A DNA stretch of 64,000 nucleotides, taken from positions 1 to 64,000 of the forward strand of contig JAPJBO010000380.1 in the NCBI GenBank assembly GCA_030068145.1, in the 5' to 3' direction. Shown here piece by piece: positions 42,726 through 60,950 of the stretch. Under the pieces are notes generated by a model, which saw only the letters and a list, made by a program, of their open reading frames with translations, was not told the origin of the DNA and made no database searches. The stretch comes from Diplonema papillatum. Taxonomy: Eukaryota; Euglenozoa; Diplonemea; Diplonemida; Diplonemidae. Made by a program: the position numbers and the translations under genes. Within the stretch, counting starts at the first letter, position 1. Each line of letters starts with the position of its first letter.

Positions 42726-43730
42726 GTTTCCCCACCGCTTTTCTGTCAGTTATCTAAGTTTACTACGGGAATTCTGCAAGCACAGTTTGGGGGATCCCTA
42801 ACTCACCATGAGCCCAGGTTTGGGTGGTGGCGGCGGTGGGTTTGTCATCTTCTTGTTGCCCGCCCGACCTGCGTGGGTGGGAGGGGTATAGTAGTAGTAG
42901 CAGTAGTTTGAACTTGATATGCAGCAACAATCTGTGACGATAGACTGCGCAATTCTGATATGCAGCAGCCAGTCTTTTTTAGCTTGTACATTATATTGAA
43001 GGGCAACCCGCAAGATTGTTATCTGTCGTGGGGTATCGCGGTGCTTGCATGTTATGACTGCAGAGCTCGCGTGTGTAGCGGGAGCAGGAAAATCCCGTCG
43101 GTCCTCCTGCTCCCCCCGCCGGCCCCCCGCACCTGACTTTTGGATATCAGCGAAACGAAATCTGGCCCACTGGATATAGCCGAAGCGAAACTTTGGCCCA
43201 TTGGATATCAAGAGTGAGAACCGGGAATTTGGGGGTTTGGATGCTTTTGGGACAGAAGCGCGATTTTCCCTCAGAACTGCTACTACTCTCCTGTCCCGGC
43301 GTTTACCTTCCCGTGAGACCTACACGGCCCTCCTGCGCCCCCGCACTTGACTTTTGGATATAAGCGAAGCGAAATTTGGCCCACTGGATATAACCGAAGC
43401 GAAATTTGGCCCATTGGGATATCAGAGAAACGGAACTTTGGGGTTTTGGATGACACCACTATACCATGCAGGGTCAAAACCTTGTGTCTTTTTAAAACGC
43501 TCCCGCGGGGCCGATGGAGCCCTAAAATTTTTTTTGGAATTTTTTTTTTTTTGCTCAACTTCCTCAAAAATTACTGCAGAGTTTGTTCCAAACTTTTAAA
43601 ATTCAAAAAACCCAATTTTTTTCCGGATTTTTTTTTTTTTGCCATTTTCAAAAAGACACAAGGTTTTGACCCTGCATGATACACAACCCGAATAGAGACG
43701 ACTCATTTCACCTTCCTGTGAAACATACAG
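42726..43730 (+). other. Predicted 1005-bp intron of the EF-hand/WD40 gene
   Basis: GT at 42726-42727 and AG at 43729-43730 (ACATACAG|GT), phase 1, restoring a Gly codon and a continuous WD40 frame. The intron holds a ~213-bp direct duplication (43100-43220 and 43320-43440) made of GGATATAAGCGAAGCGAAAT, TTGGCCCA units, and MITE copy 7 near its 3' end. An alternative AG lies at 43738-43739. No other gene in this window shows an intron. Confidence 0.6.
43464..43679 (+). mobile_element. TA-flanked MITE, copy 7, inside the intron
   Basis: Ends CCATGCAGGG ... CCCTGCATGA with TA at 43462-43463 and 43680-43681. Its right end lies only 51 bp before the predicted splice acceptor. Confidence 0.8.
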
Positions 43731-44239
43731 GTCTTGCAGCTCAGTTGCGATACGACGAAAAGCTGCAGAAGATCGTGGCTGGGGGAGCGAAGGTGCAGGC
43801 CTTCCCCGTGCGCCGGTCGCTGTCGAGCTTTCCGCCGGAGTACGAGGGCCACACGGACCCGATCGTCGCGGTGCTGGTTGCCCCGGCCTTCTCGCAGACG
43901 GTCACCGTCGACGCGAGCGGCTGCGTGCAGGTGTGGAGCACCGCGACCGGCCGCCGGGACCACCTCTTTTTCACCGCGCCGGCGGCGGCCGCGGCCGGCG
44001 GCGGGCACAAGCGCGCCGAGGCGCCGGCGACCACGTGCGCCTGCTTCGACGACAGCCAGCGGCGGCTGTTCCTCGGCACGTCGCACGGCAGGGTCGCAGC
44101 GTACAACTACACCAGCGGGCAGGAAATTGCGTCGACGCTCCTGCGCCCCCGCCGCAGGCCCCGCAGCGCAAGCGCCGCCCAGGGATTCGAGCCAGAGTCC
44201 CCCGCCAAGACCCAACCCCCCGACGCCACTCCCGCCACC

Positions 44240-44277
<38 letters not shown>

Positions 44278-45871
44278 GTCTGACCCGTGTGTGGGCAGAG
44301 TGGTGGGCCTCGAGAAAGGCGGTCGGTCGCGGCGGCGGGAGCGTGCGGCCGCGCGGAGGGAGCGGAAGCGGCAGCGGGGGTACAAAGGCATCGCGAGACG
44401 CGGCGGCGGCGGTGGCAGCAAGCCGCAAGGGAGCACGGCCCCGTTTGCGGGCGCCGAGGCCGCGCAGGAGCGCAGCGACCAGAACCCCGGCGGCGGGCTC
44501 GAAGCGGGCCACCCCATCGTGCACCGTCCGAACGCGGCGGTCAGGCAGTTGTCCGAGCCGACGAGTCTCCTCGCGCCGGCCGCTCACGAGGCGCACCATC
44601 CGAGCACAGCGGGCCGGCAGTTGTCCCAGTTCGCGGGCCTCCACGCGCCGGTGTCTCTCAGCCCCAGAACCACACACCATCCGAGCACAGCAGGCCGGCA
44701 GTTGTCCCAGTACGCGGGTCTCCACGCGCCGGCGGCTCTCAGCCCCAGAGCCGTGCATCCTCCGAACGCCGCGGGCCGGCAGGTCTCCCATGCGACGAGT
44801 GTTCACGCGCAAGCCACCCTCGAGGCGCACCCCCGATCCGCCCACCACCCGAGCACAGCGGGCCGGCAAATGTCCCAGTTCGCGGGCCTCCACGCGCCGG
44901 CGGCTCTCAGCCCCAGAACCGTGTGTGTGCATCCTCCGAACGCTGCGGGCCGGCAGGTGTCCCAGCTCGCGGGTCTCCACGCACCGGCCGCCCTCGAGGC
45001 GCACCTGGCTGGGGAAACCAGCCACCCACCGGCGAGGAGGCAGCAGCGCCCGACGATGCGCGGGGCGCCGGGTGAGCGCGGTGTCGACGGCAAGCCTGCC
45101 GTAACGAGCGGCGCGGATGTCGGCTGCGAACCTCCGGCGAAGAAGCGTGGGGCGCCGCCGTGCGGAGGCGGCGGCAGCGACCGGGAAGGAGTCGGAATGC
45201 TGGCGTATTTAAGCGGGGCCGAAGGAGTGCCTTGCACGGGGCGAGTGGTCGCAGCCTGCGGAGACCTGCTGCACATCGTGCACGAGCCGACGAAGACCCG
45301 CCTGGTGCTGGTCTGCCGCCACGGCCCCGTGGCTTGCCTGTCCGGGCTGACAGCGAACCGCAAGCCGACCCTGCTCGTCGCCACGCAGAAGGGCGTCATC
45401 GTGCAGTACAACCTGCTGACCCTCGCCGAAATGACGGTCACCTCCCGCCGCGCCGCGGCCCTCGGCCGCATCATCGCCAGCCCCCTGGCAGCCCCCGCCG
45501 GAGCAAGCTTCGGCAGTGTGCCCACCACCGCCGCGCGCTCCACCCCGCTGGTACCCCCTTCGAACGCCCCCGCTGGAGGCACCTGCGTTTTGCCCGCCGC
45601 GCGCGGGGAAAAAGGCTCGGATCCGGTGGTTTCCAGCCCCCTGACACCCCCCCCTTCGAATCAACCCCCTGGAAGCACCGGGAGTTTGCCCGCCGTGCGT
45701 GGGGAAAAAGGCTCGAATCTGATGGCTTCCAGCCCCCTGGCACCCCCTTCGAAACGACACCCTGGAAGCAGCGGGGGAAGAGGCGGATCCGACGCGTGCC
45801 GCTCGGGCCCGGTGTTCCTCACGCAGAGGCCGGCACGCGACTGCGAGGAGGAGGAGGAGGAGGAGGAAGAA

Positions 45872-45915
<44 letters not shown>

Positions 45916-47017
45916 CGACGACGGGCCCGAAGGCAACCCGCTCGAGGACCTCCGGCGGGGGCCGAGCGCGGTGGGGGTGAAGGCCAAGGCGCTGCAGGGC
46001 AGGCTGGGGGCCCCTCCGCGGTATGAGGCTGCGTGCCACCTGCCGGCCCGCGGCGTCTGGGCCCTGCTGAATTTCGAGCGGCTGGACCTCTGGCGCCTGC
46101 ACGAGGGCGCGTGCGGGGTGCACCGGTTCCCGTACAGGACGAGCCTCCCCCGGCTCGCCGCTGTGTGCAGCAACCGCGGTGAGACACTCCTCGCAGTCGG
46201 CGACGCCGGCGGGTGCGTGCACGTCCTCGGGTTGGGCCCCGGCCGCGGGAAACCCTCCGGGTTGGCCGTCCGTGAAGAGTCGATGTTCCAGGCGTGCGAG
46301 CGGGGGGGTGTGCTGGCCGTGCAGTTGGTTGACCACGGGGAGCCCCCCGCCCACTGCGGGGTCCCGTTCGTGGTCACGTCCGGGACCGACTTCGTCGTCC
46401 GCGTGCACACCGCGGCCGGTGCCGCCGTCGGGTTCTTCGGCCAGGAGCGGCCGTGGCGCCTCGCCGCCTACGCCGCCTCCTCCTCCTCCTCCCCCCCCCC
46501 TTCCCCCGGCGGCGGCACGCCCCCGTCACCCCGCGCCCCGGCACCGTGGCTACCCGAACTCGGGGCCCCGCCCTCGCCCGGCAAGCCTTCCCCCAAGGCC
46601 CGCCTGCCCGCTCGTGGGTCCGGCGTGTGCAAGCTGGCGCCCATGCCTGGCGGCGGCTCCAGGCGCGCGGGCGGAGGCGCGAAGCACGCGTCTTTCCGCG
46701 ACGACGTTTCTCCTCCCCCCGCGGCGGCTGCGCGGGGGACCGATGCGTTCGGCGGCGGCGGCGGGCATCCGGACTGCGCGGATGCCGCAACCGGGCGGAA
46801 CGCGCACTACCGCGGCGGCCCGCGGCACGTCAGCGAGGTTGTGCGCGCGGTGCAAGTGTCGAGGGGGCTGCACCCGAAGCAGGACTGGGTCCCGCGGGCC
46901 GTGTCTCTGCTCCCGCTCAAGGGGAAGCCGGGGTTTCAAGAAGTCGCGCCTCCGGCGGCCTCGTGGTCTGCCGTGGCGAAGCTGATCGCCAAGAAGAGCA
47001 CGAGGAAAAAGAAGTGA
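43731..47017 (+). CDS. EF-hand/WD40 protein, exon 2
   Basis: Codons 417-1511. Opens with LAAQLRYDEKLQKIVAGGAK and a WD40 blade ending SGCVQVWS, continuing the propeller of exon 1; LLVATQKGVIVQYNLLTL and LLAVGDAGGCVHVLGLG are later blades. Three low-complexity insertions interrupt it: a run of eleven Gln (about 44240-44275), six ~28-residue repeats of the type HHPSTAGRQLSQFAGLHAP (44515-45010), and an acidic run of over 20 Glu then Asp (45845-45925). The C-terminal third is Pro/Ser/Gly-rich and ends KLIAKKSTRKKK. The frame would stay open upstream into the MITE, so the exon start depends on the splice prediction. If the intron is wrong these are two adjacent genes. Degraded copies of its last ~120 codons follow downstream. 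Confidence 0.75.
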
Positions 47018-47039
47018 GGCGGGTAGGAAGACGAAAAAT

Positions 47040-47215
47040 TAACTTCTACCTAGTAGTATAAGATGGATAAAAACTCGGGTTTTGGCGGTATCCATCTTAA
47101 ACACGGGGGCACTCGTGTAGTCACTTTGCACAGGGGTACCTCACCCCGTGTTTAAGATGGATTGGCATTCTCGCCCGTTATCCATCTTAATCAAGGGGGT
47201 TTGGCTATCCATCTT
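47040..47215. repeat. TATCCATCTTA foldback mini-array
   Basis: TAAGATGGAT and ATCCATCTTA alternate five times with CACGGGG beside several of them, between the true gene end and its first 3' copy. Confidence 0.6.
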
Positions 47216-47235
47216 ATGCACGGGGGGGGCTAGGT

Positions 47236-48450
47236 ATGCGAAATAATTCGACAAGTATCGTGTCTTCATCATTTATCGAAGACACCGGGGCCCGGGGTGT
47301 GTAAGCTGACGCCCACCTTGAACGGAGTGGCGAAGCACCCGTCTTTCCGTGACGATCTTCCTCGTTCCCCCGCGGCGGCGGCGCGGCGGCCGGTGGATTC
47401 CGGGCGATGCGTTCGGCGGCGGCGGCGGGCATCCGGACGGCGCGGATGCCGCAACCGGGCGGAACGCGCACTACCGCGGCGGCCCGCGGCACGTCAGCGA
47501 GGTTGTGCGCGCGGTGCAAGTGTCGAGGGGGCTGAGGACTGGGTCCCGCGGGCCGTGTATCTGCTCCGCTCAAGGGGAAGCCGGGGTTTCAAGAAGTCGC
47601 GCCTCCGGCGGCCTCGTGGTCTGCCGTGGCGAAGCTGATCACCAAGAAGAGCACGGGGAAAAAGAAGTGAGGCGGGTAAGAAGACGAAAAATTACCTTCT
47701 GTGCGAAATAATTCGAGTATATAGTGTCTTCATTTATCGAAGACACCGGGGTCCGGCGCGTGCAAGCTGGCGCCCACCTTGAACGGAGTGGCGAAGCACC
47801 CGTCTCTTTCCGTGACGATCTTCCTCCTTCGGCGGGCATCCGGACGGCGCGGATGCCGCAACCGGGCGGAACGCGCACTACCGCGGCACGTCAGCGAGGT
47901 TGTGCGCGCGGTGCAAGTGTCGAGGGGGCTGCACCCGAAGCAGGACTGGGTCCCGCGGGCCGTGTCTCTGCTCCCCTTCAAGGGGAAGCCGGAGTTTCAA
48001 GAAGTCGCGCCTCCGGCGGCCTCGTGGTCTGCCGTGGCGAAGCTGATCGCCAAGAAGAGCACGGGGAAAAATAAATGAGGTGGTCGGACTTCACCAGACT
48101 CAGAAGCTGATGTCGAAAAAGGCAGGTGAGATAAAATCTTCGTAATCGTCGGCGTGTGCTTCTCGTTGTCGGATGCGATAATACGCGCCGCAGTCCCAAA
48201 AGATGTGCCTCTCGTCCTCGGTCGCATTGCTCTCACAGTGCCTGCTGCTGGGAGTTCTATCGCGGCGGCCCGCGACATGTCAACGAGATCTTTTGCGTGG
48301 TGCAAAGAACGAGGGAGCTGCACCCGAAGCAGGACTGGATCGCGGTGTCTCTGCTCCCGCTCAAGGGAAGCCGGGGTTTCAAGAAGTCGCGCCTCCGCCG
48401 GTCTCGTGGTCCTGCCGTGGCGCTGATCGCCAAGAAGTGGCAGTGAACGG
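47236..48450 (+). pseudogene. Three degraded 3'-end copies of the WD40 gene
   Basis: Copy 1 (47236-47700), copy 2 (47701-48100) and copy 3 (about 48230-48450) each reproduce the last codons of the WD40 gene (QVSRGLHPKQDWVPRAV, GFQEVAPPAASWSAVAKL) and, for copies 1 and 2, the adjacent 3' flank. Each also has internal deletions. In copy 2 the last ~60 codons remain in frame to the stop (KKSTGKNK at 48078). The fragments start from the same internal place, GTGTGCAAGCTGGCGCCCA, preceded by a shared TTATCGAAGACACCGGGG leader. None has the propeller, so they are not independent genes. Confidence 0.75.
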
Positions 48451-48529
48451 TGTGGGGTCGTACGTACTCCTACCGCCAGAGGTGAAATTATAAAATTGTG
48501 GGAAGGCGAACTTCTCTGCGAAAGCGTGC

Positions 48530-48690
48530 GACGAATCGAAGAACTGGAGCGTGGAGCTCGTAGCAACCACCGTGCTGCCGCGATAGCAACGCGCAAGGAA
48601 TGTCTTCATCATTCGAAGAACGCGAGCGTGGGGTCCGTAACAACCAACCGCGCTGCCGCGGCAGCAACGCGCAATGTTAAATCTGAGGAC
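48530..48690. repeat. 80-bp direct repeat
   Basis: CGAAGAAC(T/G) ... GAGCGTGG(A/G)G then GTAGCAACCACCGTGCTGCC / GTAACAACCAACCGCGCTGC, twice in a row. The remaining stretch to 48890 has no recognised gene. Confidence 0.55.
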
Positions 48691-48892
48691 GCGATCGGCG
48701 GCCTTTCTGTTTGTTTCAACAGCCACTTCCGCGGCTCGTTCTCCATCCCCAGCCCACCTACCGGCCCGCCTGAAGCGAGTCATAACACAGATAGATCACC
48801 GTTTTCCCCCGCTTCGTTTTCCGTTCCGGCGTCTGTTCATCGACAGCCAAATCGCTGAAGCTCCGCCTAGTCCGCTGAGGTCTTGCGTATAG

Positions 48893-49490
48893 TATATTCC
48901 CCGGGAAGCCAAAAGAACGAAAATCGAAAAAGCGCCAGCTTTATCAATTTCCGCCAGATGAGAAAACCTGCCCACAGGAACCAACAACCTTCGGGTGGGC
49001 CAGTCTGAAACAGGTCGTGCGTAAAGCATAATCCCCGGGAGGCCAAAAAGAACGAAAAAATTAAAAGCGCCAGCTCTATCAGTTTCCGCCAGACGTCAAA
49101 ACTCTATAGCCTGCCTACAGGAACCAAGTGCCTTCGGGTGGGCTAGTCTGACACTCGTTCGTTGGGGGGAAAACTATAGAAAGGCGCAGGCTGGCAGAGA
49201 TGTCATGAGCGAGCCGATGCTGCGGAATGGAGAAGCCAACGTTGAGGGGACGCCCCCTTGCAGCGAGCACGGCCGGGCCCCAGACGAAGAAGCGGTCGAA
49301 ATCGAGCGGGTTGAGGCGCCGCTGCCCGCCGCCGAGAACCCCTCCGCGGATGGCAGCTCGTACAACGCGTGCACACGCGTCGTCCCGCCGCCGGCGGAGC
49401 CCAGCGTGCAGCTGTTGTTCGGCCTGTTCGGGTGCTGCTTCGGGCCGCCGGAGGCGGTCCTGGGCAAGGCTCGCCGGCTCGCGTGCTGAG
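48893..49490 (+). pseudogene. Two 5'-end copies of the DHHC gene
   Basis: 49022-49490 repeats the promoter-proximal region and first 94 codons of the gene at 51798: the flank CAGGAACCAAGTGCCTTCGG through GGGGGGAAAACTATAGAAAG, then MSEPMLRNGEANVEG. There are a few amino-acid changes (A36V, L46P). It diverges abruptly after CTCGCGTGCTG, so a stop follows at once. A shorter copy of only the upstream flank lies at 48893-49010. No transmembrane or DHHC segment is present. Confidence 0.8.
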
Positions 49491-51600
49491 CCTCGAATAC
49501 TCCCCAAGACGTAGTCCCACACTTTCCGCCTGGTCCACGGACAGAAGCACGAACACAAGCAAACTCACGCAAAACATCAGAACTACGAAAATCATCGGCC
49601 CGCAGAATTAAAAACTGCAGTGCGCTAGATCAGCAGTCTACTACGCAACTCGAGAACTTAGCCCTCCACAGAGAAGTAGCTTCATATACCCTATGTTGAC
49701 CCCATCCAACCAGTGGCTTATATATGGGTCTGGTGCTCGGACCAAGTCCGAGCAACCAAAAAAAAAAAAAAAGGACAGAATGCCCCGGCTGAGGGGCCCA
49801 GTAGTAGTGCTACAGTACAGCAGTCACACTAGCAGTACACAGCACCGGTTACTGCACCTTTGGATCATCGTTGAAGCAACGTACAGCCTCAATTTCGGAA
49901 CCTGCGACTGGCCCAATAGCTTGAAAAAATTTTCGGCGCCTGCGGCGCTGGTATTTCTGGCTTGTGTATTGTTTCATGACGTGTTGCCAAGAAAGCGAAG
50001 ACCGCGGCTGCTGTTGCAGATTACTGCCAAGTGTTCTTGAATGATCCCGGCACACTGCTACAGTACCCCAACACTCGCTTTCTTCGCATGGCTCTTTTGC
50101 TTCCGAAGGTGATGGACAGTAGTGCCAACCACAAAAAGGTGCACCCTGTCGGATATATAAACGTGCAGTTGTGCCGCAACTGGGATTTTTAGTAACTCCG
50201 AGCAACTTGTGGACAGTTACGTGGGAGGAATTTTTATATATAAGGCCCTGCATACAACCAGGGGATAAGCTTCTATATCCACATTTGGACCGTCGGTCAG
50301 AATTTGGAAAGGCCGCCGGAAAAAAAAAAAAAAAAATGGCACTACCGTGACTGCATCGTCCCCCAGGCGCCGGCAGCGGTGGCCAATGTGCAATTGGAGG
50401 GGCAACCACTGCACCAGCAAAGGCTACAGAAGTGTGCACGCAGGGGGAATCCCACTTCCCAGCACCAGTAGAAGTGGCCAGTTTGGATGCAAGTTGGACG
50501 GGCACGGGGGAAAGAACAACAGCTCTGCATGACACATCACGTGCGACACCGGCAGGCGAGCCAACTCAGTGCAAAAATTGCAGAAAAACAGTGAAAACGC
50601 AAAAAAGCCGTTATCGGTCTAAATTTGGAAAATGGGCCGGAGACCAAGCTAATGCCCAAAAGCCCTGCCTCAGGGATTTTGGGCATATATATATATTTAT
50701 ACGCCGGTCTAGATGGGCGGGTCACCCGTCCATCCTCAAAAAAAAAAAAAAAAAAAAACCCACGGGCTGGCGGGTGTGGGTAGGCTACCACAGCAGTCAT
50801 AGGGGGTCATGGGGGGGCCCATAGGGGGTCCATAGGGGGGTCCATAGGGGGTCCCAGGGGGGTCATAGGGGGGGGGGGGTCATGGAGGCGAGCAAGCGGC
50901 CCAACCCGGCGAGACACAGCCGAACTTCCAACCGCAGTGGTGGATTCTATCACGCCGAACTCAGGATGGGGCCGGGACAATGCCGGGGAAAAGGAAGGAC
51001 ATGCTAGGGCAACATACGTTGTTCAGCTCCTGGAAGAGACAGTGCACGGCAACCGCAAAGAGAGAGCAGTTGGCACGACGCCCCATGCCCTTATTCTCCA
51101 ACTCTTCCTTGTAATCCAACTGCTGTGTTTTCCCCCTCACGCGCCCTTTGCCGGACAACTGCTGGTTCTCCCACCTCTCTGCTGCACCCTCCACCCTCTG
51201 GAACATCTGGCTCGGAATCTATACACGGTGCGCAGTGATGCACGGTGATGCACAGTGATCCACGCTAGTGCGGTGTGCACAGTGACACGATAGCGCATGG
51301 TGGTGCATAGTGATCCACAGTGGAGGACAGTGGTGGCACTAATTTTCGGGCCCTCAACGACTTTGCAGGGCTGGCTGGGGTGGCTGGACAGGCTGGACCA
51401 CCACTGGGGGGGGGGGGTCTGGGGGGTCGACAAACACGTGCTCGGCACCCCGGTGCAAAAGACGGGTACCCGTCCATCTACATGGACTATTGCTCTAGGC
51501 CGAAATCCCCTTATAAATCCCTGCCCTGCCTCCATTCAAAAAAAAAAAAAAAAAAGAAAACGGGCCTCAAAAGGCAACTGACTCAGCGGTTAGACTGTCG
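49491..51600. other. Gene-free stretch with A-runs and G-rich repeats
   Basis: Runs of 14-20 A occur at about 49757, 50322, 50739 and 51538. 50800-50885 is a G-rich repeat of (CATAGGGGGGTC), a possible quadruplex former. 51230-51330 repeats GTGATGCACGGTGATGCAC-type words. No convincing coding frame. Confidence 0.4.
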
Positions 51601-51797
51601 AAGTCGTGCGTAAAGCATAATCCCCAAGGAGGCCGAAAAGAACGAAAAATAAAAAAGCGCCAGCTCTATCAATTTCCGCCAGATGAAATAAATTCTAAAA
51701 CCTGCCTACAGGAACCAAGTGCCTTCGGGTGGGCTAGTCTGACACTCGCTGTCGTTGGGGGGAAAACTATAGAAAGGCGCAGGCTGGCAGAGGTGTC

Positions 51798-52871
51798 ATG
51801 AGCGAGCCGATGCTGCGGAATGGAGAAGCCAACGTTGAGGGGACGCCCCCTTGCAGCGAGCACGGCCGGGCCCCGGACGAAGAAGCGGTCGAAATCGAGC
51901 GGGCTGAGGCGCCGCTGCCCGCCGCCGAGAACCTCTCCGCGGATGGCAGCTCGTACAACGCGTACACACGCGTCGTCCCGCCGCCGGCGGAGCCCAGCGC
52001 GCAGCTGATGTACGGCCCGTTCGGGTGCTGCTTCGGGCCGCCGGAGGCGGTCCTGGGTAAGGCCCGGCGACTCGCGTGCTGCGACCTGCTGCTCACACCC
52101 TACTTCTACGGCGGGTGGATCGTGCAGCTGGTGCACGTGGTCACCGTCGTCGGATACGCCGTCTTCACCCCGGCCCACCGCCACCCTTGGTTGATGGCCG
52201 TGGTCGGGGTGTTATTCGTCGTGTCGGTGTTTCTCCTGTGCAAATCGCAGTGCATCGACCCCGGTGTGGTTCCGAGGGGGCGGGTCTCGCCCGACTTCCC
52301 GACGGGTCCGAACCTGGTCGGAAGCCACGTGGGGACGAAGGTGAACGGCCTGCTTGTGGGGGAGCATGATTACGTGGGCCTGGTGGGTACCGGCGATACC
52401 CTCGTGGTGTGGAGGTGGTGCCAGACGTGTCTGGTGCACCGGCCGCCGCGGGCCGCGCACTGCAGCGTGTGCGGCTGGTGCGTGAAGGAGTACGACCACC
52501 ACTGCCCCGTGGTCGGGTGCTGCGTTGCGGAGCGGACGTTTCGGTACTTCACGCTGCTGCTCCTCCTGCTCGCTGCGCAATGCCTCGTCGTGTTCGTGTC
52601 GTCAGCTTACTTCGTCTTCCAGCACGACTGGGACGACGCAGCCGGAACCGACGTGCCGGCCCTGACCGTCTTCGCCATGTTCGCCTCCGGGCTGGTCGCA
52701 TGCATGTCCGGGTGCTGGACCTTCAGCATGGGCACACACTACCTCACCCTGTCCTGCAAGGACATGACCCTCCGCGAAGAAGTCCGCGGCCTCGCGCACA
52801 AGAAGCGCAGCAACGGGTGCCGCAACTGCACCACGCGCCTCTGCGGCCCGGAGACGCCCGCTACCATATGA
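51798..52871 (+). CDS. DHHC-type protein S-acyltransferase (palmitoyltransferase)
   Basis: 357 codons, no intron. It transfers a fatty acyl chain, usually palmitate, from acyl-CoA to protein cysteines at membranes. Four hydrophobic spans: ~107-123, 131-147, 251-274 and 287-308. Between spans 2 and 3 lie the DPG motif (D154-G156) and the Cys-rich domain: WCQTCLVHRPPRAAHC...CVKEYDHHCPVVGCCV, with the catalytic DHHC at 233-236 and the zinc-ligand Cys/His in place. After span 4, MTLREE (323-328) matches the TTxE position. A soluble ~95-residue N-terminus contains acidic stretches and the Cys pair at 77-78, possible acyl sites. The ATG at 51798 follows GGCAGAGGTGTC, and the same context precedes the 5' copy at 49205. 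Complete and probably active; the substrate is unknown. Confidence 0.92.
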   Translation: MSEPMLRNGEANVEGTPPCSEHGRAPDEEAVEIERAEAPLPAAENLSADGSSYNAYTRVVPPPAEPSAQLMYGPFGCCFGPPEAVLGKARRLACCDLLLTPYFYGGWIVQLVHVVTVVGYAVFTPAHRHPWLMAVVGVLFVVSVFLLCKSQCIDPGVVPRGRVSPDFPTGPNLVGSHVGTKVNGLLVGEHDYVGLVGTGDTLVVWRWCQTCLVHRPPRAAHCSVCGWCVKEYDHHCPVVGCCVAERTFRYFTLLLLLLAAQCLVVFVSSAYFVFQHDWDDAAGTDVPALTVFAMFASGLVACMSGCWTFSMGTHYLTLSCKDMTLREEVRGLAHKKRSNGCRNCTTRLCGPETPATI

Positions 52872-53035
52872 GAGGAGGGGAGGCGAGACGCCATGCTTCC
52901 TTGAAGGAGGGTCAGATCCGACAGCTCTTGCTGTTTACAGTACACGGTAGAGTTCAGCCTCAGAAGCTGAAGCTGAAGAGGGTTTTCTACGTGTGCAGGT
53001 ATGCTGCTACTGCGAGTTTCACTGGAAAATACACC

Positions 53036-53425
53036 CGACGATGCTGCCGGCACCAACGTGCCGGCCCTGACCGTCGTCGCCATGTTCGCCTCCGGGCTGG
53101 TCGCATGCATGTCCGGGTGCTGGACCTTACACACACTACCTCACCCTGTCCTGCAAGGACATGACCCTCCGCGAAGAAGTCCGCGGCCTACGCACAAGAA
53201 GCACAGCAACGGGTGCCACGCGGGGCTCTGCGGCCCGGAGACGCCCGCTACCATATGAGAGGGGGGGAGGCGAGGCGCCATGCTTCCTTGAAGGAGGGTC
53301 GGATCCGTTGGTGTTTTACAGTACACAGTGGAGCTCAGCCTCACGAAGCTGAAGCTGAAGAGGGATTTCTACGTGTGCAGACACTGCTGCTGCTGCTACT
53401 GCAAGTTTCACTGGAAAATACACCA
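53036..53425 (+). pseudogene. DHHC gene 3'-end copy A with its 3' flank
   Basis: Begins CACCCGACGATGCTGCCGGC and follows the parent from VPALTV to the stop, with two small deletions (after SGCWT, and in the NGCRNC region). It is then followed by the parent's ~160-bp 3' flank (GGCGCCATGCTTCCTTGAAG). It encodes only span 4 and the tail. Confidence 0.8.
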
Positions 53426-53990
53426 CCAACGCGCCGGCCCTGACCGTCGTCGCCATGTTCGCCTCCGGGCTGGTGGGTAGCGGCGATACCCTCGTGGTGT
53501 GGCGGTGGTGCCATGCCAGATGTGCCTGGTGCACCGGCCGCCGCGGGGGCTCACTGCAGCGTGTGCGGCTGGTGCGTGAAGGAGTACGACCACCGCTGCC
53601 CCGTGATCGGGTGCTGCGTTGCGGAGCGGTCGTTTCGGTACTTCCTTCACGCTCCCACCGCGAAGAAGTCCGCGGGCTCGCGCACAAGAAGCGCAGCAAC
53701 GGGTGCCGCAACTGCACCACGCGCCTCTGCAGCCTGGAGACGCCCGCTACCATATGAGAGGAGGGGAGGCGAGGCGCCATGCTTCCTTTAAGGAGGGTCG
53801 AATCCGACAGCTCTTGCTGTTTTACAGTACACGGTAGAGTTCAGCCTCAGAAGCTGAAGTTGAAGAGGGATTTCTACGTGTGCTCACTCCCGCATGAAGC
53901 TGGAGTTGAAGAGGGAATTCTCCGTCTCCTACTCACTCCTGCATTAGGAGAATGCTGCTACTGCAAGTTTAACTGGAATACAGAAAAAGG
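53426..53990 (+). pseudogene. DHHC gene 3'-end copy B, rearranged
   Basis: Starts like copy A (CGCGCCGGCCCTGACCGTCG), but at GGGCTGGT it jumps back to the earlier parental sequence GGTAGCGGCGATACCCTCGT and reads the DHHC region (shifted frame; DHHC changed to DHRC). It then jumps from TTCGGTACTTC forward to CGCGAAGAAGTCCGCGGG. Each jump is at a short identical stretch in the parent. The parental 3' flank follows (53758-53990), with one extra internal repeat. Confidence 0.8.
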
Positions 53991-54284
53991 GGAAAACAAG
54001 GGTCTAACGTACGATGTGGTAGCCCCCCGAGATGACCATGTGTGAGAGAATAGGCCATCCCAGGAGGTCACGGGGGGACGGAGGGTGGGAACCCCAAATC
54101 TCCCGGACCTCGCCACTAAAGCGGCGGCAACAAAGCTAGTGACAACCCGCGCGCGAGGGTAACAGGGGCCGCACGGCCTCGTATACAAACAGCAAGGGAG
54201 GGTGGAGGAAATAGCTATTTACCTACAGTAGATAATGGGCCATTGTACACAACGAGCTTCCCGAATTATTGCACGAGTGCCCCG

Positions 54285-54350
54285 AAGCTAGCAACAGCGA
54301 TGCTCCTAGTAACGGCGAGTGAACAGGGCAGAGCCCAAGCCAGAACCGGT
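54285..54350 (+). rRNA. LSU rRNA fragment (5' domain)
   Basis: CCTAGTAACGGCGAGTGAAC followed by AGGGCAGAGCCCA is the universally conserved start of eukaryotic LSU rRNA domain I. Only ~60 bp match, so it is a fragment. Palindromes of TACTTGTCATATGACAAGTA (54382-54401, 54432-54451) follow. Confidence 0.65.
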
Positions 54351-54459
54351 GTTCTACGGATATCCGGAATGTGGCGCAACTTACTTGTCATATGACAAGT
54401 ACCTACTTGTCATGGATTGTACTTGTCATTGTACTTGTCATATGACAAGTACAACGTAC

Positions 54460-54735
54460 TGTGGACGTCAGAGTCCGAACCTGCCCTTTCATAGCCCGGT
54501 AGGCCTTCTTCCGCAATGAAGTGTCAGCTTGGAACTGTTACGAACAAGAGGAATCCAACTGGTTACTTTAGCGACAGCATTTCGCATTTCGCTTCATCAC
54601 AGCGGTGGCGAGTGGAATGACTTCTGCTGACAGAACAATGTAGGTAAGGGAAGTCGGCAAACTGGATTCCGTAACTTCGGGAAAAGGATTGCCTCTGAGG
54701 ACACACGCGATCCTTGTCTTCCCCCTACCTAAACT
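54460..54735 (+). rRNA. LSU rRNA fragments, permuted order
   Basis: GGAACTGTTACGAACAAGAG...GGTGGCGAGTGGAATGACTT matches the LSU segment that normally lies downstream of AAGGGAAGTCGGCAAACTGG and CCGTAACTTCGGGAAAAGGA, but here it comes first (54530-54622 before 54645-54700). Fragmented pseudogene; not transcribable as a normal rRNA. Confidence 0.7.
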
Positions 54736-54807
54736 GCTGTTTCGCCAGATAGTAGGTAGGGACAGAAGGAATCTCATTGGCCTATTCATGCGCGTCTTTA
54801 AATAGAA

Positions 54808-54867
<60 letters not shown>

Positions 54868-55075
54868 ACCTGAACTCTCAGCGTTGACATTCAGGGCACT
54901 GGGCAGAAGTCACATTCCACTCGCCACCGCTGTGATGAAGCGAAATGCTGTGGTTTGATTAGCCAGTTGGGTTCTTCTTGTTTGTAACAGTTCCAAGCTG
55001 ACACTTCATTGCGGGCACAACATGCAAGAAGGCCTACCGGGCTATGAAAGGGCAGGTTCGGACTCTGACGTCCTC
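54736..55075 (-). rRNA. LSU rRNA fragment, inverted
   Basis: On the minus strand it runs from CAGAGTCCGAACCTGCCC through GACTTCTGCCCAGTGCCCTG, CGCGGGTAAACGGCGGGAG, CTCTTAAGGTAGCCAAATGC and CTACCTACTATCTGGCGAAA. This is a ~330-bp continuous stretch of the most conserved central part of LSU rRNA. The first ~150 bp also occur in the + orientation at 54468-54622, so the two form an inverted repeat. Confidence 0.8.
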
Positions 55076-55335
55076 GCGATCCTTTTCTTCCCCCTTTTTG
55101 AGCAAGCCTCCCACTTGGTGGAAAAGTACTCCAGCTGGCCGCTTCGGGCGAGTTGCAAAGGAAGAAACAAGGCTGCAACCCCCCGCACACCAGGCACAGG
55201 CGAATCTGGGTCTTGTATCCATCGTGTTGCTGGGGGGCTGGGGTTGCAAGCGTTCAACAGCAGAAGGACCCATCTTGCAGTTGCCGTTTTCTTTTTACAT
55301 AGCACTGAGGGAAAGCTTGTGGGCCGCGCGCGAAA

Positions 55336-55965
55336 ATGTTAAACGAAGCCAACGAAAAACGTGCCAGCACGGCGCCGGAGCGGAAGGCGTTCAATGCAAT
55401 TCCTCTGTGCTCTCGTGGCATGGGATGTCCCGGGCCGCGGCGATCGCTACGAACAGCCACCTGAACGGACTCACGTTACTCTCCTGTCTGCGCCGGCTGC
55501 TCAGGTCCCGCGCTGTCATGGTCCGCCTTGTGCGTCGGCGGCTTAAAGGACCGAAACACAGCGCAGACAGAACACAGTGTGCGGTCATGCACTTTCCAGA
55601 AAGAAATGTTAAGCGAAGCCAACGAAAACGTGCCAGCACGGCGCCGGAGCGGAAGGCGTTCAATGAAATTCCTCTGTGCTCTCGTGGCATGGGATGTCCC
55701 GGGCCTACGAACAGCCACCTGAACGGACTCACGTCACTCTCCTGTCTGCGCCCTGCTCAGGTCCCTGGTCCGCCTTGTGCGTCGGCGGCTTAAAGGACCG
55801 AAACACGGCGCAGTGTGCGGTCATGCACTTTCCAGAAAGCTCCGCTATTACAACCTGCCTCCGTCAGCAATGCGCGCTGGGCCGTAAAAAGAAGACACGC
55901 CAGCGCTGCGAGCACTAGCGAGTCGCAGTCACAATCGGGGCGGCGGCCCTGAGCTTTTTATCGGA
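55336..55965. repeat. Degenerate tandem pair (unit ~270 bp)
   Basis: AATGTTAA(A/G)CGAAGCCAACG through CGGTCATGCACTTTCCAGAA occurs at 55336-55604 and again, with several deletions, at 55607-55840. The end (CGCAATGCGCGCTGGGC, GCGAGTCGCAGTCACAATCG) is shared with 56840-57300. Frames differ between copies. Confidence 0.65.
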
Positions 55966-55974
55966 TCGCTCCAG

Positions 55975-56180
55975 TGTGTGGTCCTTTTTAGGATGGATTG
56001 TGTCTGGCGCTCTCTCTCCCTTAAGGTTGCCGCCCGAGGGAACCGGCTGTGAGCCGAAACTCGACGCCGGTCTCTCCGGATTGCACCAGGAGAGAACTTC
56101 GCGGCGGATCACAAAGCACCCGCCCTGCACGAGGCACGCGCCCAAGACCCATGCATGGCTACCGCAGCACCCTCCATGTT
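55975..56180. repeat. Repeat shared with 1779-2015
   Basis: CTTAAGGTTGCCGCCCGAGG, GGATTGCACCAGGAGAGAAC and ACGAGGCACGCGCCCAAGA in the same order as in the copy at 1779-2015. Confidence 0.55.
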
Positions 56181-56599
56181 TGCACCTTCCTCGGATGCTA
56201 CGGTCGGGAAGGGGCTTCAATGTAGTTGGGAAAGCACGTTCCCCTTACCCGCGTTCTGCGTGTGGGGTTGCCACCGGGCAACTGCCGCAGCAGCCGCTGA
56301 TACGTCCTTCGCCCTTGGCTCACTTTCGGGAGGTGTCGCTGCTCACCTACCAGTGTGTTCCTGGTTGTTGCCCTATATCTGATCGATCCAGTGTGCGCGC
56401 GATCAGCCGGCTTGCCGGCTGTTTAAATTTCGAGCCCGACTCGCACAAATCAGCCGATTTTCAACAGTGTAAGCTTTGGCCATGCCGCTCAATCAGGTTG
56501 ATGCGCCGGCAAGATGTTGTCGTAAACCCCTTCTGATCGGCAGACCTCCCAAAAATAAGCCGGCTGAGTATCAGCCGGTCAGTTATTCAAGTTTTTTTT

Positions 56600-57300
56600 T
56601 TTCTTTTTGTATAAGCACCTGGCACCTGCTTTGTAGGAAATGCTCGAGGAGACTGCCAGTCGCGATAGATCAAAGGAGGTAAATGTCACACGACACACAG
56701 GTAAATCTGGGTTTAGTGGCGGGCGTAAGCGTTCAACAAAAAATACCCACTTTGTAGTTGTATTGTTTTCTCCCCCTCTAGCCTCCTTCGAAATGAGCAC
56801 AAGGCAGTCCCTCGAGTATTTCCGGCTGAAATCAGCCGCTTTTTTCCTTAGCGCGAACACTGGATCGCTCAGACACGGTCGTAGGGGCCTCCTCCCAGTA
56901 GCACGGGTGGTCCTGGCTGTGACGAGCTACGAACAGCCGCCTGACGAACCAGACTCACGCCGCTGTCCTGTCACAAGCCAGCGCTGCCTGGCGAGTCGCA
57001 GTCACAATCGGGGCGGGGGCCCTGATTTTTTTATCTGGTCGCTCAGACACGGTTGTAAGGGCCTCCTCAGTAGCAAGGGTGGTCCTGGCTGTGACGAGCT
57101 ACGAACAGCCGCCTGAAAAACCAGACTCACACCGCTGTCCTGTCTGCAGACACTCAGGTACCGCGCCGATGATGGTCCGCCTGTGGCTTAAAGAACCGAA
57201 ACACGGCGCAGACGGGACCAGTGCGGTGTTGAGCACATATCCATTCCAAGCACGCTCTTGCGATCCCCCTCCGTCAGTATTGCGCGCTGGGCGGCCCCCC
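56600..57300. repeat. Repeat cluster (56600-56820; pair at 56860-57060/57061-57300)
   Basis: 56600-56820 matches 27445-27690. After it, TCGCTCAGACACGGT, AGGGCCTCCTC, GTGGTCCTGGCTGTGACGAG and CTACGAACAGCCGCCTGA occur twice in tandem and are related to 55430-55800. 57300-57780 shows no recognised gene. Confidence 0.6.
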
Positions 57301-57786
57301 GAGTATTTCCTCCTGTTGCCCTTATCCCTCGCTCTAACTTCGCCGCCTCGGTTTCTGTCTCCCAAGCAAGCTTCTTCGATGCCGATCGCCAGTTTCTTTT
57401 CTTTTTGCGCAGCTTTTTCGAGTAATGATACCGATGGGCGGGCAACAGTAGCGCACATTTTTCTGTATTGCACACAGATACGCATCAGCACGCGGCTCGG
57501 AAAAAGTGGCATGTGTTTTGTGGCCGATCAGAGTTCCCAACCTGATGACGAATTGGGATAGCGATGTGAACGCGGAAACGCCCTGGGACTGCCACAGCGT
57601 TACCATACAGCATCACTATGCCTATCCCGTCTACTTGCTTTGCTGTGGGTTCTTCTTCTCTCCAGGAAGCTCAAGCGCAGTAGCGATGACTCTGAGAACA
57701 CATGCTAGGTGGGAGGGGAGAGGCCCTGGGCTGCTGAAGGCGGGACCACGCCCTTTAAGTCAATCAACCGGTACGCACAAACATAC

Positions 57787-58477
57787 AGCAATCCGAAGCC
57801 GTACGAGTGGTACGTAGGGTACGCGGCGCTGTGCACGGTGCTGAAGAAGTGGATGCGTGGTACGTAGGGTACGCGGCGCTGTGCACGGTGCTGAAGAAGT
57901 GGATGCGTGGTACGTAGGGTACGCGGCGCTGTGCACGGTGCTGAAGAAGTGGATGCGTGGTACGTAGGGTACGCGGCGCTGTGCACGGTGCTGAAGAAGT
58001 GGATGCGTGGTACGTAGGGTACGCGGCGCTGTGCACGGTGCTGAAGAAGTGGATGCGTGGTACGTAGGGTACGCGGCGCTGTGCACGGTGCTGAAGAAGT
58101 GGATGCGTGGTACGTAGGGTACGCGGCGCTGTGCACGGTGCTGAAGAAGTGGATGCGTGGTACGTAGGGTACGCGGCGCTGTGCACGGTGCTGAAGAAGT
58201 GGATGCGTGGTACGTAGGGTACGCGGCGCTGTGCACGGTGCTGAAGAAGTGGATGCGTGGTACGTAGGGTACGCGGCGCTGTGCACGGTGCTGAAGAAGT
58301 GGATGCGTGGTACGTAGGGTACGCGGCGCTGTGCACGGTGCTGAAGAAGTGGATGCGTGGTACGTAGGGTACGCGGCGCTGTGCACGGTGCTGAAGAAGT
58401 GGATGCGGCAGGGAGCTGGTCGCCGGCTGCGGGAACAGCAACCTGTGCGAGGACCTGTACGATAACGCGGGGTTCAC
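57787..58477 (+). repeat. 5' methyltransferase gene copy expanded to twelve 50-bp units
   Basis: Starts with ATCCGAAGCCGTACGAGTGG (codons 17-23 of the gene at 59167), then a 50-bp block (TACGTAGGGTACGCGGCGCT, GTGCACGGTGCTGAAGAAGT, GGATGCGTGG) occurs twelve times without visible variation (57811-58407). It then continues as the gene to about codon 64 (AACGCGGGGTTCACG) and diverges. 50 is not a multiple of 3, so no frame is preserved. The join is at GTGG, present at both edges of the parental block. Confidence 0.9.
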
Positions 58478-58479
58478 GT

Positions 58480-59166
58480 ATTTGGTCGTCACGAGTCGTT
58501 GGGGCTAGGAATTACTAGTTAGCAGCGTCCTACATGAAATCTATCAAAAAACCTTATGTTAGGGCGGAAACAACCCGCACCACGTGAAGCACCGCAAGTG
58601 TCGCGAAACCCAAGTACCACACTGCGAGAAAATACATATAAACGCGGACAACAGACCGGTACGGCTACAAGGCAACCCCTGCTCAACTAGTGCTCGCCTG
58701 CCTTGATGGCACTTGCACCTTAAAGAACTCAATGCTCAACTTGTAGAACGTGGGGGGCCCAAGACTACACTCCACGAAGGAATGTACTTGGTGTCGGTCA
58801 CAAACAGTCCCGGACATGGCTAGCCATAACCCATAACGAAAGCGTGCACTAAATATACAACCCGTAACCACATAGCCCTTTCTTGCTCTAAGAGAACCCC
58901 TTCATGAACGGTCACACGGAGACCCTAAAACCCCGGAATTTCAAGCGAACTTCAACTCTAAAAAGAAACCGAGTTCCGCTTGTTGCGCACGCACAAACAC
59001 TTTTTAGGCAAACCCTCCGCAGGGCCAATAATCACTGGTTGGCAGCGTCCTACACGAAATTTGCCAAAGCAAAACTGAGTTCCACTAGTGCGCCCGCGAG
59101 CAAACACATTTAGGCTAACCCTCCGCACAGTCCCAACACTGCACGGACACGTGAGCAGTTGATGAT
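58480..59166 (+). promoter_or_regulatory. 5' flank of the methyltransferase gene, internally repeated
   Basis: GTTGGCAGCGTCCTACACGA / GTTAGCAGCGTCCTACATGA occurs at ~59038 and ~58519. A ~55-bp block (GAGTTCC, CACAAACAC, TTTAGGCAAACCCTCCGCA) occurs at 58970 and 59080. The ACTTCAACTCTAAAAAG motif is at 58946. These are probably upstream-flank copies like those of the DHHC gene; promoter function is inferred only from position. Confidence 0.4.
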
Positions 59167-59793
59167 ATGGCCCACTACAGCAACAAAGACTACTGGGAAG
59201 CTCGGTACGAGGCGAATCCGAAGCCGTACGAGTGGTACGTAGGGTACGCGGCGCTGTGCACGGTGCTGAAGAAGTGGATGCGGCAGGGGAGCCGGGTGAT
59301 GGTCGCCGGCTGCGGGAACAGCACCCTGTGCGAGGACCTGTACGACAACGCGGGGTTCACGAACGTCGTGGGCGTCGATTTCAGCACAACTGTGGTCCAG
59401 GCGATGCGGGATCGAGTCGGAAGGCGCGAGGGGGTCAGCTACATAGCAGAGGACTTACGGTCCCTGCCCTTCCCGCCTGGCACGTTCGATTGCATCATCG
59501 ACAAGGCAACCCTCGACTCGTGCCTTTGCGGCACAGACAGCTCGGCGGCGCAGCGCTCCGGCGGCCGCGTGATAGCGGAGGTGGTCCGGATGCTGAAGCC
59601 CGGCGGCGTGTTTCTGTCGCTGTCGCACAGCGCGCGGCAGGAGCGGCAGCTCTACACCGCGCCGCACCTCCCGTGGCAGGTCACCGTCGACACGGTCCCG
59701 AAGGACTACGGCACCGGCTCCCTGCCCGAGGAGCAAGTCGTCGATGACCACCCGCACTACTTCCTCTATGCGTGCACGAAGGCCATCAAGTGA
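59167..59793 (+). CDS. Class I SAM methyltransferase, EEF1AKMT4/METTL13-like
   Basis: 208 codons, intronless. YWEARYEANPKPYEWYVGY (9-27) is the hallmark N-terminus of the family that methylates lysines of translation elongation factor eEF1A. VMVAGCGNS (44-52) is SAM-binding motif I, VGVDFS (69-73) has the acidic ribose-contacting D71, FDCIIDKATLDS (108-119) is the motif in place of the catalytic post-II loop, and RMLKPGGVFLSLSH (141-154) is the motif III region. Length and architecture fit the single-domain type; the C-terminus (YFLYACTKAIK) is the expected last strand. The ATG at 59167 is four codons before the conserved SNKDYW block. Upstream and downstream lie degraded copies of its own ends. 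Cytosolic action and eEF1A as target are family-based inference. Confidence 0.88.
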   Translation: MAHYSNKDYWEARYEANPKPYEWYVGYAALCTVLKKWMRQGSRVMVAGCGNSTLCEDLYDNAGFTNVVGVDFSTTVVQAMRDRVGRREGVSYIAEDLRSLPFPPGTFDCIIDKATLDSCLCGTDSSAAQRSGGRVIAEVVRMLKPGGVFLSLSHSARQERQLYTAPHLPWQVTVDTVPKDYGTGSLPEEQVVDDHPHYFLYACTKAIK

Positions 59794-59874
59794 CGGCCCT
59801 TCTAGCGTCAATCCTGCCATGTGTAACAGCAGAGCACCAAAAATGTAGCATACAGTGAGCGCACTGTATATTGC

Positions 59875-60240
59875 ACATGCCAATTCACCGTCGGCCACCT
59901 TCGACACGGTCCCGAAGGACTACAACACCGGCTCCCTGCCCGAAGAGCAAGCCGTCGATGACCACCCGCGCTACTTCCTCTACGCGTGCACGAAGGCCAT
60001 CAAGTGACGGCCCTTCTAGCGTCAATCCCGCCATGTGTATTGCGCATGCCAATTCACCGTCGGCCACCGTCGACACGATCCCGAAGGACTACGGCACCGG
60101 CTCCGTGCCCGAGGAGCAAGTCGTCGATGACTACCCGCACTACTTCCTCTATACGTGCACGAAGGCCATCAAGTGACGACCCTTCTAGCGTCAATCCTGC
60201 CATGTGTAACATAGCCTCGCGGCGACCCCGAGGCTCAGCC
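59875..60240 (+). pseudogene. Two 3'-end copies of the methyltransferase gene
   Basis: Copy 1 (59875-60050) and copy 2 (60051-60240) each carry the last ~36 codons (FDTVPKDYNTGSLPEE; VDTIPKDYGTGSVPEE, both ending CTKAIK and stop) and the parental 3' flank (CGGCCCTTCTAGCGTCAATC). Both remain in frame to the stop, with mainly conservative changes. Neither has a SAM-binding core. Confidence 0.85.
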
Positions 60241-60950
60241 CGCAGCCCCGCGGGGCCGGGGCTTCCGGAACTGGGAGTGGATCCACTTGAAGTTCCAGTG
60301 GACAACAGATGCCGCCAGCGCTGGGAAAGATCGAGTGACCGCCTCATCCCGGGACGGCTTGGGCGGGGCTGTCGGGGTTGACGGTAGAAGATCCCCAGCG
60401 CGTCCTCCAAGTTGCTTTGTTGCTGTTTCTTCCTTACCACCTTGTGCGGTGTCACGGGATGTTTGGCAGCCGCTGCTAAACAACATTGCATGCTAATCCA
60501 TGTGGTTCATGTACTTAAAAGAACTTAATGCTAAACAAACATAACGTAGGCGGCGCCGAAGCTTTACCAGCTTCGGCGGACACCATTTGCGCACTTAACC
60601 ATGGTTAAGAAGACGACTGAAAGCATAGACACAAAGATAGCTCAAAGCATCTGCAGAATAACACGAAAAGCCCCCAGGCAAAAACCCGTTTTCACGCTTC
60701 TTCTTCTTTTTCTCGGGCGGCTGGTACAACGGCATTGCGAGGCCCTTTGCAGATTGTGTGTGAAGAGAGAGTGTTGATATGCCTGTGCGGGTTCCACGCG
60801 AAGAGTGAAAGAGGGGTGTTCATATGGCTGTGCAGTGTGCACTAGGGTGGGGAAACATCATCCAAAGGGAAACATGGCTTTCACGTTCGCAAACTGGTTC
60901 GGTGTAGGCATACACGAGAGAACTTGCGACGGAAACCCAAGAGGACTTCA
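60240..60950. other. No gene recognised
   Basis: 60240-60480 is GC-rich and open on both strands but matches nothing I know. 60455-60510 (GTGTCACGGGATGTTTGGCA, GCCGCTGCTAAACAA) is the first of four related repeats at 60455, 61078, 61585 and 62248. Confidence 0.3.

What the first reader, a model, noticed from the sequence alone, without database searches (positions are those of the whole stretch)
47236..60240. Edge echoes: three unrelated genes are each flanked by degraded copies of their own ends
The WD40, DHHC and methyltransferase genes have nothing in common, yet each is followed by two or three tandem copies of its last codons plus 3' flank. Two of them are preceded by copies of their 5' part. 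Polarity is kept: 5' pieces lie upstream and 3' pieces downstream. No copy has a poly(A) tail or target duplication, so retroposition is unlikely. Decay of whole-gene tandem duplicates by internal deletion, or re-replication with template switching, would give this. If it is genome-wide it would be a distinct mode of gene-end amplification.
Basis: partly seen in the sequence, partly recalled or inferred. Interest (0 to 1): 0.9.

Follow-up and report, generated by a model that had tools for sequence, protein, structure and literature searches.

The report
Partial tandem duplicates at gene ends
In this marine protist many genes are flanked by short, decaying head-to-tail copies of their own beginning or end, a published but unexplained habit of its genome that looks like frequent small tandem duplications tolerated only when they leave the gene whole.

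Summary
The last 114-401 coding bases plus 3' flank of three genes recur downstream as head-to-tail units; two genes also have 5' copies upstream. The largest gaps between copies and genes are mostly inserted dispersed repeats. The genome matches the published Diplonema papillatum assembly: contig lengths reproduce its N50, and the paper's example gene, SufC, has the published row of upstream copies. That paper (PMC10161547) already reports such "repeat-bounded gene structures" in "dozens of gene models". New here: of 53 sampled genes from two families, 21 carry direct copies of part of themselves nearby, at 8 5' ends and 18 3' ends; upstream pieces come from the first half of the gene, downstream pieces from the second. 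Best reading: frequent small tandem duplications straddling gene ends. Polarity then follows from geometry, since such duplications leave the gene intact. The window copies decay like neutral DNA. Whole-gene duplicates decaying by internal deletion are not supported. A lean of 3' units toward the coding side leaves a mechanism aimed at gene ends possible but unproven.

The parts
43676..47017 (+).
46616..47057 (+). Unit 1: 3' coding end plus 3' flank, the gene's own copy
47058..47236 (.). Dispersed repeat with inverted terminal matches (40 places scored of 580 candidates, own place included) between the gene and unit 2
47237..47701 (+). Unit 2, 3' echo (gene-like part 47288-47700, 93.8%); 5 of 5 CDS indels shift the frame
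47702..48083 (+). Unit 3, 3' echo (gene-like part 47749-48083, 95.2%); 7 of 8 CDS indels shift the frame
48257..48437 (+). Unit 4, more diverged 3' echo (89.4%)
48877..49011 (+). Copy of the DHHC gene's 5' flank only (86.7% to 51600-51745)
49014..49488 (+). 5' echo of the DHHC gene: 5' flank plus the first ~284 bp of CDS (94.5%); keeps a 94-codon open frame 49205-49489
49666..51564 (.). Dispersed repeats (2157 candidates, 40 scored) between the 5' echo and the DHHC gene
51798..52871 (+). Intact DHHC palmitoyltransferase gene (357 aa, PF01529)
52632..53036 (+). DHHC 3' unit 1 (405 bp), the gene's own copy
53037..53424 (+). DHHC 3' echo, unit 2 (94.7%); 4 of 4 CDS indels shift the frame
53425..53474 (+). 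Start of DHHC unit 3 (copy of 52647-52696); joins the next piece at a shared CTGGT
53467..53644 (+). DHHC core piece (copy of 52377-52550) inside unit 3
53654..53883 (+). 3' end of DHHC unit 3 (copy of 52768-52996)
57790..58478 (+). 5' echo of the methyltransferase gene (copies of 59215-59282 and 59232-59361) with a perfect 12 x 50-bp array at 57807-58407
58502..58552 (+). Weak copy (80%) of the methyltransferase 5' flank 59022-59075
59167..59793 (+). Intact methyltransferase gene (208 aa, PF08241)
59893..60035 (+). Methyltransferase 3' echo, unit 2 (93.7%)
60062..60211 (+). Methyltransferase 3' echo, unit 3 (96.0%); 60041-60460 has a 100% identical copy on contig C679

Best explanation
These are partial tandem duplications. 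In this genome segments of roughly 150-630 bp are often duplicated head-to-tail. When such a segment straddles a gene end, the gene stays complete and the surplus copy, coding end plus flank, lies outside it: 5' pieces upstream, 3' pieces downstream. Duplications wholly inside a coding sequence are removed unless short and in frame. The surplus copies then decay as neutral DNA, lose pieces by small deletions, sometimes expand (12 x 50 bp), receive mobile-element insertions that separate them from the gene, and are now and then copied elsewhere. I infer that transcription in long polycistronic RNAs cut by spliced-leader trans-splicing makes extra 5' and 3' ends cheap, so they persist. Shown: tandem structure at most affected ends, polarity, decay of the window copies, insertions, occurrence outside this locus. 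Inferred: the selection filter, the tolerance argument and the molecular duplication step.
For: In 21 of 53 sampled genes (20 of 52 without the window's own DHHC gene) part of the gene recurs as a direct copy in the flank; 26 affected ends, all of the expected polarity; at 23 of 26 the matched stretch crosses the start or stop codon; at 15 of 18 3' ends and 4 of 8 5' ends the two arms overlap or lie within 113 bp. One gene (L037) has inverted own-gene matches only. Window copies are not coding: 23 of 26 CDS indels shift the frame and substitutions are 35 synonymous to 75 nonsynonymous, at the neutral expectation (p 0.39). Unit lengths of 20 3' units show no triplet preference (remainders 0, 1, 2: 6, 6, 8), while 8 of 9 repeat-finder rows inside the ORFs 43676-47017 and 23740-25443 have periods divisible by three (and the rows; the exception is 31 bp long, period 16). 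Inserts explain the large gaps: 47058-47236, 49666-51564. Array coverage over 47 loci does not step at the start or stop and fades over about 300-400 bp into the CDS. The published SufC example has the same structure at its 5' end and also at its 3' end. Polycistrons, SL on essentially all mRNAs and 3'-UTRs of median ~800 bp: PMC10161547, sections 7 and 9.
Against: At 7 of 26 ends (4 of them 5' ends) the arms are 173-971 bp apart, and at 3 5' ends (L018, L025, L081) the match lies wholly inside the CDS, so simple tandem structure is not shown there. The stop codon is not uniformly placed within 3' units: the coding side averages 0.64 of the unit (20 units, KS p 0.016; 10 units of 90% identity or more, mean 0.67, p 0.12). 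Units of 200 bp or more straddling the stop outnumber flank-only ones 14 to 2 (two of the 14 counted by their larger spacing): p 0.0045, or 0.09 if flank-only copies are half as detectable; but without a cut-off, which I chose after seeing the data, it is 15 to 7, p 0.12. Of the 9 repeat rows outside these ORFs that I picked for comparison, 3 also have periods divisible by three. No outgroup, read or population data were available, so rates and the selection filter are untested.
Confidence: 0.75

Rival explanations
1. Amplification aimed at gene ends: a mechanism tied to transcript 3' or 5' ends (polyadenylation or trans-splice sites, R-loops, replication-transcription conflict, or high GC of coding ends) makes tandem duplications preferentially there.
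For: 3' units favour the coding side of the stop; stop-straddling units of 200 bp or more outnumber flank-only ones; array coverage is about 0.3-0.37 in the 500 bp after the stop against about 0.12-0.18 in the 900 bp upstream of the start, except 0.10 at its far end; CDS is GC-richer than flanks, 0.61 against 0.53-0.54.
Against: Copies with both arms in neutral DNA decay faster and are missed more often, which mimics this bias; without a length cut-off the excess is 15 to 7, p 0.12; upstream coverage is flat across the start; tandem duplicates also occur elsewhere in the window.
Confidence: 0.15
2. Whole-gene tandem duplicates that decayed by internal deletion.
For: Copies carry many deletions; the DHHC unit 3 is a composite with an internal deletion; pieces near mid-gene occur at L018 (0.50) and L079 (0.51) downstream and L081 (0.46) upstream.
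Against: No piece with its midpoint in the far gene half at 26 affected ends. Most 3' units follow the gene closely (15 of 18 within 113 bp).
Confidence: 0.04
3. Retroposed or transposon-captured gene ends.
For: Dispersed repeats abut several copies; small copies of echo plus flank occur elsewhere (C679, C507, C380:77368-77543); a T-run lies shortly before the C679 copy.
Against: No poly(A) at the ends of the window copies, read by eye; the long A-runs seen lie in the inserted repeats. Units join head-to-tail to coding sequence. Target-site duplications were not sought.
Confidence: 0.02
4. The copies are functional: alternative 3' ends, regulatory 3'-UTR modules, or short proteins.
For: The DHHC 5' echo keeps a 94-codon frame with a stop at its junction; methyltransferase 3' copies have no indels in the coding part.
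Against: Neutral substitution pattern overall, and frameshifts in most of the longer copies. [quoted passage not shown]
Confidence: 0.02
5. Assembly artefact.
For: The 50-bp array is perfect and its copy number could be wrong; some contigs look redundant.
Against: Most window copies differ by 4-13%; the paper reports PacBio support for the SufC array, which is reproduced here.
Confidence: 0.02

Closest known systems
Repeat-bounded gene structures of Diplonema papillatum (Valach et al. 2023, PMC10161547; abstract and outline, passages, and sections 7 and 9 read)
   Same: Same genome. Degenerate tandem copies of a gene's own 5' region (UTR plus CDS) upstream, or of a first exon's 3' end in the first intron or 3'-UTR; the example, SufC, is found here with 12 near-complete and one fragmentary upstream copy by my grouping of 19 match rows.
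   Different: The paper gives 'dozens of gene models' and one figure; the parts read give no polarity rule, frequency or mechanism, and do not name the three window genes. SufC also has 3' copies.
Partial gene duplicates (Katju 2012, PMC3449122; passages read)
   Same: Incomplete copy of one ancestral gene; the review cites partial duplicates as 76% of duplications segregating in 15 D. melanogaster lines.
   Different: Here units are a few hundred bp, mostly tandem, often multi-copy, and found next to 21 of 53 sampled genes.
Small segmental duplications in Drosophila (PMC6380325; passages read)
   Same: The paper states that 5'-UTR partial gene duplications are less frequent than 3'-UTR ones (citing Emerson et al. 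2008, not read); here 8 5' ends against 18 3' ends.
   Different: Those are polymorphic duplications; here copies as low as 76% identity are seen.
Processed pseudogenes (recalled)
   Same: Degraded gene copies.
   Different: No poly(A) at copy ends, tandem, same strand, flank included.

Membership tests
Repeat-bounded gene structures (D. [quoted passage not shown]
Repeat-bounded gene structures (D. papillatum) | Lies in the D. papillatum nuclear genome | tested here: met
   Contig lengths interpolate to N50 190,143-191,113 for a 280.29-Mb total against the published 190,080 (assumes a longest contig of 1.0-1.3 Mb); SufC with upstream units of about 400 bp as published.
Repeat-bounded gene structures (D. 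papillatum) | Copies degenerate (paper: 71-96% for the SufC copies 1-12) | tested here: met
   86.7-96.0% for most window copies; two pieces of the methyltransferase 5' copy are 98.4 and 100%, one flank piece 80.4%
Repeat-bounded gene structures (D. papillatum) | Supported by long reads and absent from mature mRNA (shown in the paper for SufC) | not testable with these tools
   no reads or RNA available
Partial gene duplicate | Truncated copy of a single ancestral gene whose full-length form is ancestral | tested here: met
   The intact copies match homologues over 99-100% (methyltransferase, 6 homologues besides itself) and 46-100% (DHHC, 9 homologues) of their length; not tested for the 1113-aa ORF
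Processed pseudogene | Poly(A) tail at the copy's end | tested here: not met
   Copy ends of the window read by eye and aligned
Processed pseudogene | Target-site duplication; loss of introns | not tested
   Not sought; the copied parts come from single ORFs
Whole-gene tandem duplicate with decay | Both gene ends present in the extra copy | tested here: not met
   26 affected ends show only pieces with midpoints in the near half, within flanks of 0.16-1.9 kb

The most novel reading that the evidence does not exclude
Gene ends are themselves duplication hotspots. Something at transcript ends in this trans-splicing, polycistronic genome (RNA-DNA hybrids, polyadenylation-linked pausing, GC-rich coding ends) repeatedly makes head-to-tail duplications centred on the last few hundred coding bases, so that about two genes in five carry a decaying record of it.
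Probability: 0.15. Interest if true: 0.75.

Novelty: new member of a known kind. Interest (0 to 1): 0.42.

Why it matters
If the sample holds, roughly 40% of genes in a diplonemid, a member of an abundant marine protist group, sit beside fragments of themselves. That is an unusually clear record of how often small tandem duplications arise and which survive. It also disturbs automatic gene annotation and read mapping, as the genome paper notes, and makes it testable whether gene ends are mutation hotspots or only safe places for duplicates.

Tried and rejected
Rejected: alternative terminal exons (frameshifts, neutral substitutions); retroposition; whole-gene duplicates. The two large gaps were first taken for spacer; genome searches showed dispersed repeats.

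Two first sample scripts left loci of minus-strand matches unturned; some of their odd cases vanished when this was corrected, and only searches are used for the counts. The spanning against flank-only comparison depends on unit-length cut-off and on decay, so it is reported as inconclusive; it used 47 loci, not the six added later. On checking, I lowered the gene-end hotspot reading from 0.17 to 0.15 because the excess is not significant without the cut-off, and raised whole-gene decay and assembly artefact by 0.01 each for the mid-gene pieces and the unread long reads. L055 and L058 have weak second matches (68%) and may include paralogous exons; the polarity still fits.

The sample is 29 DHHC loci (L041 is the window's own gene) and 24 mitochondrial-carrier loci, best family matches, not picked for echoes. 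Duplicate loci of one gene were dropped: 13 of 60, leaving 47, plus 6 fetched by place. Flanks reach 156-1799 bp upstream and 654-1852 bp downstream of the CDS, so 21 of 53 is likely a lower bound; CDS starts are first ATGs of ORFs, not annotated. DHHC matches beyond the 30 cut loci, and many carrier matches, were not examined.

Literature searches for prior reports; among the listings returned only PMC10161547 was found to describe the pattern, and the other listed papers were not read for it, except passages of PMC6380325 and PMC3449122. Supplements could not be read, so whether these three genes are listed there is unknown.
Full report
What is there. Self-comparison of the window and pairwise alignments confirm copies beside three genes: the ORF ending at 47017, the DHHC gene 51798-52871 and the methyltransferase gene 59167-59793. 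Most 3' copies begin inside the coding sequence and run through the stop codon into the 3' flank; further copies follow. The DHHC and methyltransferase genes also have upstream copies containing their 5' coding part; for DHHC the 5' flank is included. One shuffle of each of 47 loci gave 0 self-pairs of 41 bp or more against 119 real ones.

Why the copies look scattered. Between the first gene and its second unit lies a 179-bp repeat (47058-47236) with inverted terminal matches, seen at 40 scored places of 580 candidates, its own included. The join between units 2 and 3 lacks it. Between the DHHC 5' copy and the gene lie dispersed repeats filling most of 49666-51564 (2157 candidates, 40 scored); about 215 bp on either side of them remain in all. 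In the methyltransferase 5' copy a 50-bp unit has expanded to 12 perfect copies. In the third DHHC unit a jump back to the DHHC core joins at a shared CTGGT, which fits template switching or end joining at short homology; this is one junction.

The copies are decaying. Summed over the window copies, 23 of 26 indels in coding parts shift the frame, and substitutions (35 synonymous, 75 nonsynonymous, no new stop) match the neutral expectation. Copies share ancestry, so these counts are not independent. The DHHC 5' copy keeps a 94-codon frame, and the methyltransferase 3' copies have no coding indels.

Which organism. The window lies on contig C380 of an unnamed 271-Mb genome in 2910 contigs. The closest homologues of the DHHC and methyltransferase proteins are EukProt and ENA entries without organism names. 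Contig lengths, interpolated and set against a 280.29-Mb total, give an N50 of 190,143-191,113; the D. papillatum paper gives 190,080. The paper's example, SufC, was found as the only match over the family cut-off among 13, at C37:309421-310137, with 12 near-complete and one fragmentary upstream copy at about 400-bp spacing, which fits the published 12 copies plus a distal thirteenth. A fragment of 28S rRNA in the window fits the roughly 3600 scattered pieces that the paper reports. A check by the SL-5S-U2 array did not complete by the tool.

Already in print. [quoted passage not shown] In the parts read it offers no mechanism and no frequency. A search for 'repeat-bounded' listed four papers, and the other three are by title on other matters.

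How common. I took the best-scoring DHHC and mitochondrial-carrier loci plus six more carriers. Of 53 distinct genes, 21 have a direct copy of part of themselves in the flank: 10 of 29 DHHC, 8 of 18 and 3 of 6 carriers. Eight 5' ends and eighteen 3' ends are affected. Upstream copies have midpoints at 0.02-0.46 of the coding sequence, downstream copies at 0.50-0.98. The match crosses the start or stop at 23 of 26 ends. The arms overlap or lie within 113 bp at 15 of 18 3' ends and 4 of 8 5' ends; the other seven are 173-971 bp apart. One further gene has inverted matches only (L037). SufC, outside the sample, has copies at both ends.

What it means. A head-to-tail duplication that crosses a gene end leaves the gene whole and puts the surplus on the expected side, so polarity needs no special machinery. 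It speaks against random insertion of fragments and against whole-gene duplicates that lost their middles. Tandem repeats inside two long window ORFs are nearly all in frame (8 of 9 repeat-finder rows; the exception is 31 bp long), while the 20 3' units show no triplet preference. Fewer 5' than 3' cases agrees with the statement in PMC6380325 that 5'-UTR partial duplications are less frequent (passages read).

What is unsettled. Units sit unevenly around the stop, with more coding than flanking sequence (mean 0.64, p 0.016, 20 units, two of them from the window outside the sample; p 0.12 for the 10 with 90% identity or more). Stop-straddling units of 200 bp or more outnumber flank-only ones 14 to 2 (p 0.0045), but with faster decay of flank-only pairs p is 0.09, and without the cut-off, chosen afterwards, the count is 15 to 7, p 0.12. 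GC-rich coding ends (0.61 against 0.53-0.54) could also promote duplication.

Verdict. The phenomenon is a reported feature of D. papillatum, now seen in two fifths of a small gene sample and best read as small tandem duplications filtered by selection. A hotspot at gene ends remains possible.

Noticed in passing
window 60041-60460 and G000:C679:91219-91638: A 420-bp stretch holding the last methyltransferase echo and its flank is 100% identical on another contig, where the methyltransferase search found only this 3' piece. The stretch ends about 27 bp into DNA that has many genome copies (60434 onward).
   Followed up: partly
L007 1502-1646 (C507) and G000:C380:77368-77543: Further small dispersed copies of echo-plus-flank DNA: 93% to window 58408-58554, and 98% inverted to window 48788-48963.
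   Followed up: partly
window 54463-55073: A 28S rRNA fragment (54767-54981, minus strand) overlapping the second arm of an inverted repeat; fits the scattered 28S pieces reported for this genome.
   Followed up: no
window 44521-45005, 45554-45747, 23968-24374: In-frame tandem repeats of 81, 96 and 141 bp inside long ORFs.
   Followed up: partly
L083 1970-3396: The published SufC example also has 3' copies downstream (593-bp offset, 95%), not mentioned in the paper sections read.
   Followed up: yes
L037 (C128): A DHHC gene with inverted rather than direct upstream matches (63 bp at 90%, 30 bp at 87%).
   Followed up: no
window 14211-15337 and 15876-17748: Two large 41-bp satellite arrays in opposite orientations.
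   Followed up: no
contigs C1110/C2795, C1288/C2312, C410/C596: The same gene core occurs on two contigs, suggesting redundant contigs or recent large duplications.
   Followed up: no
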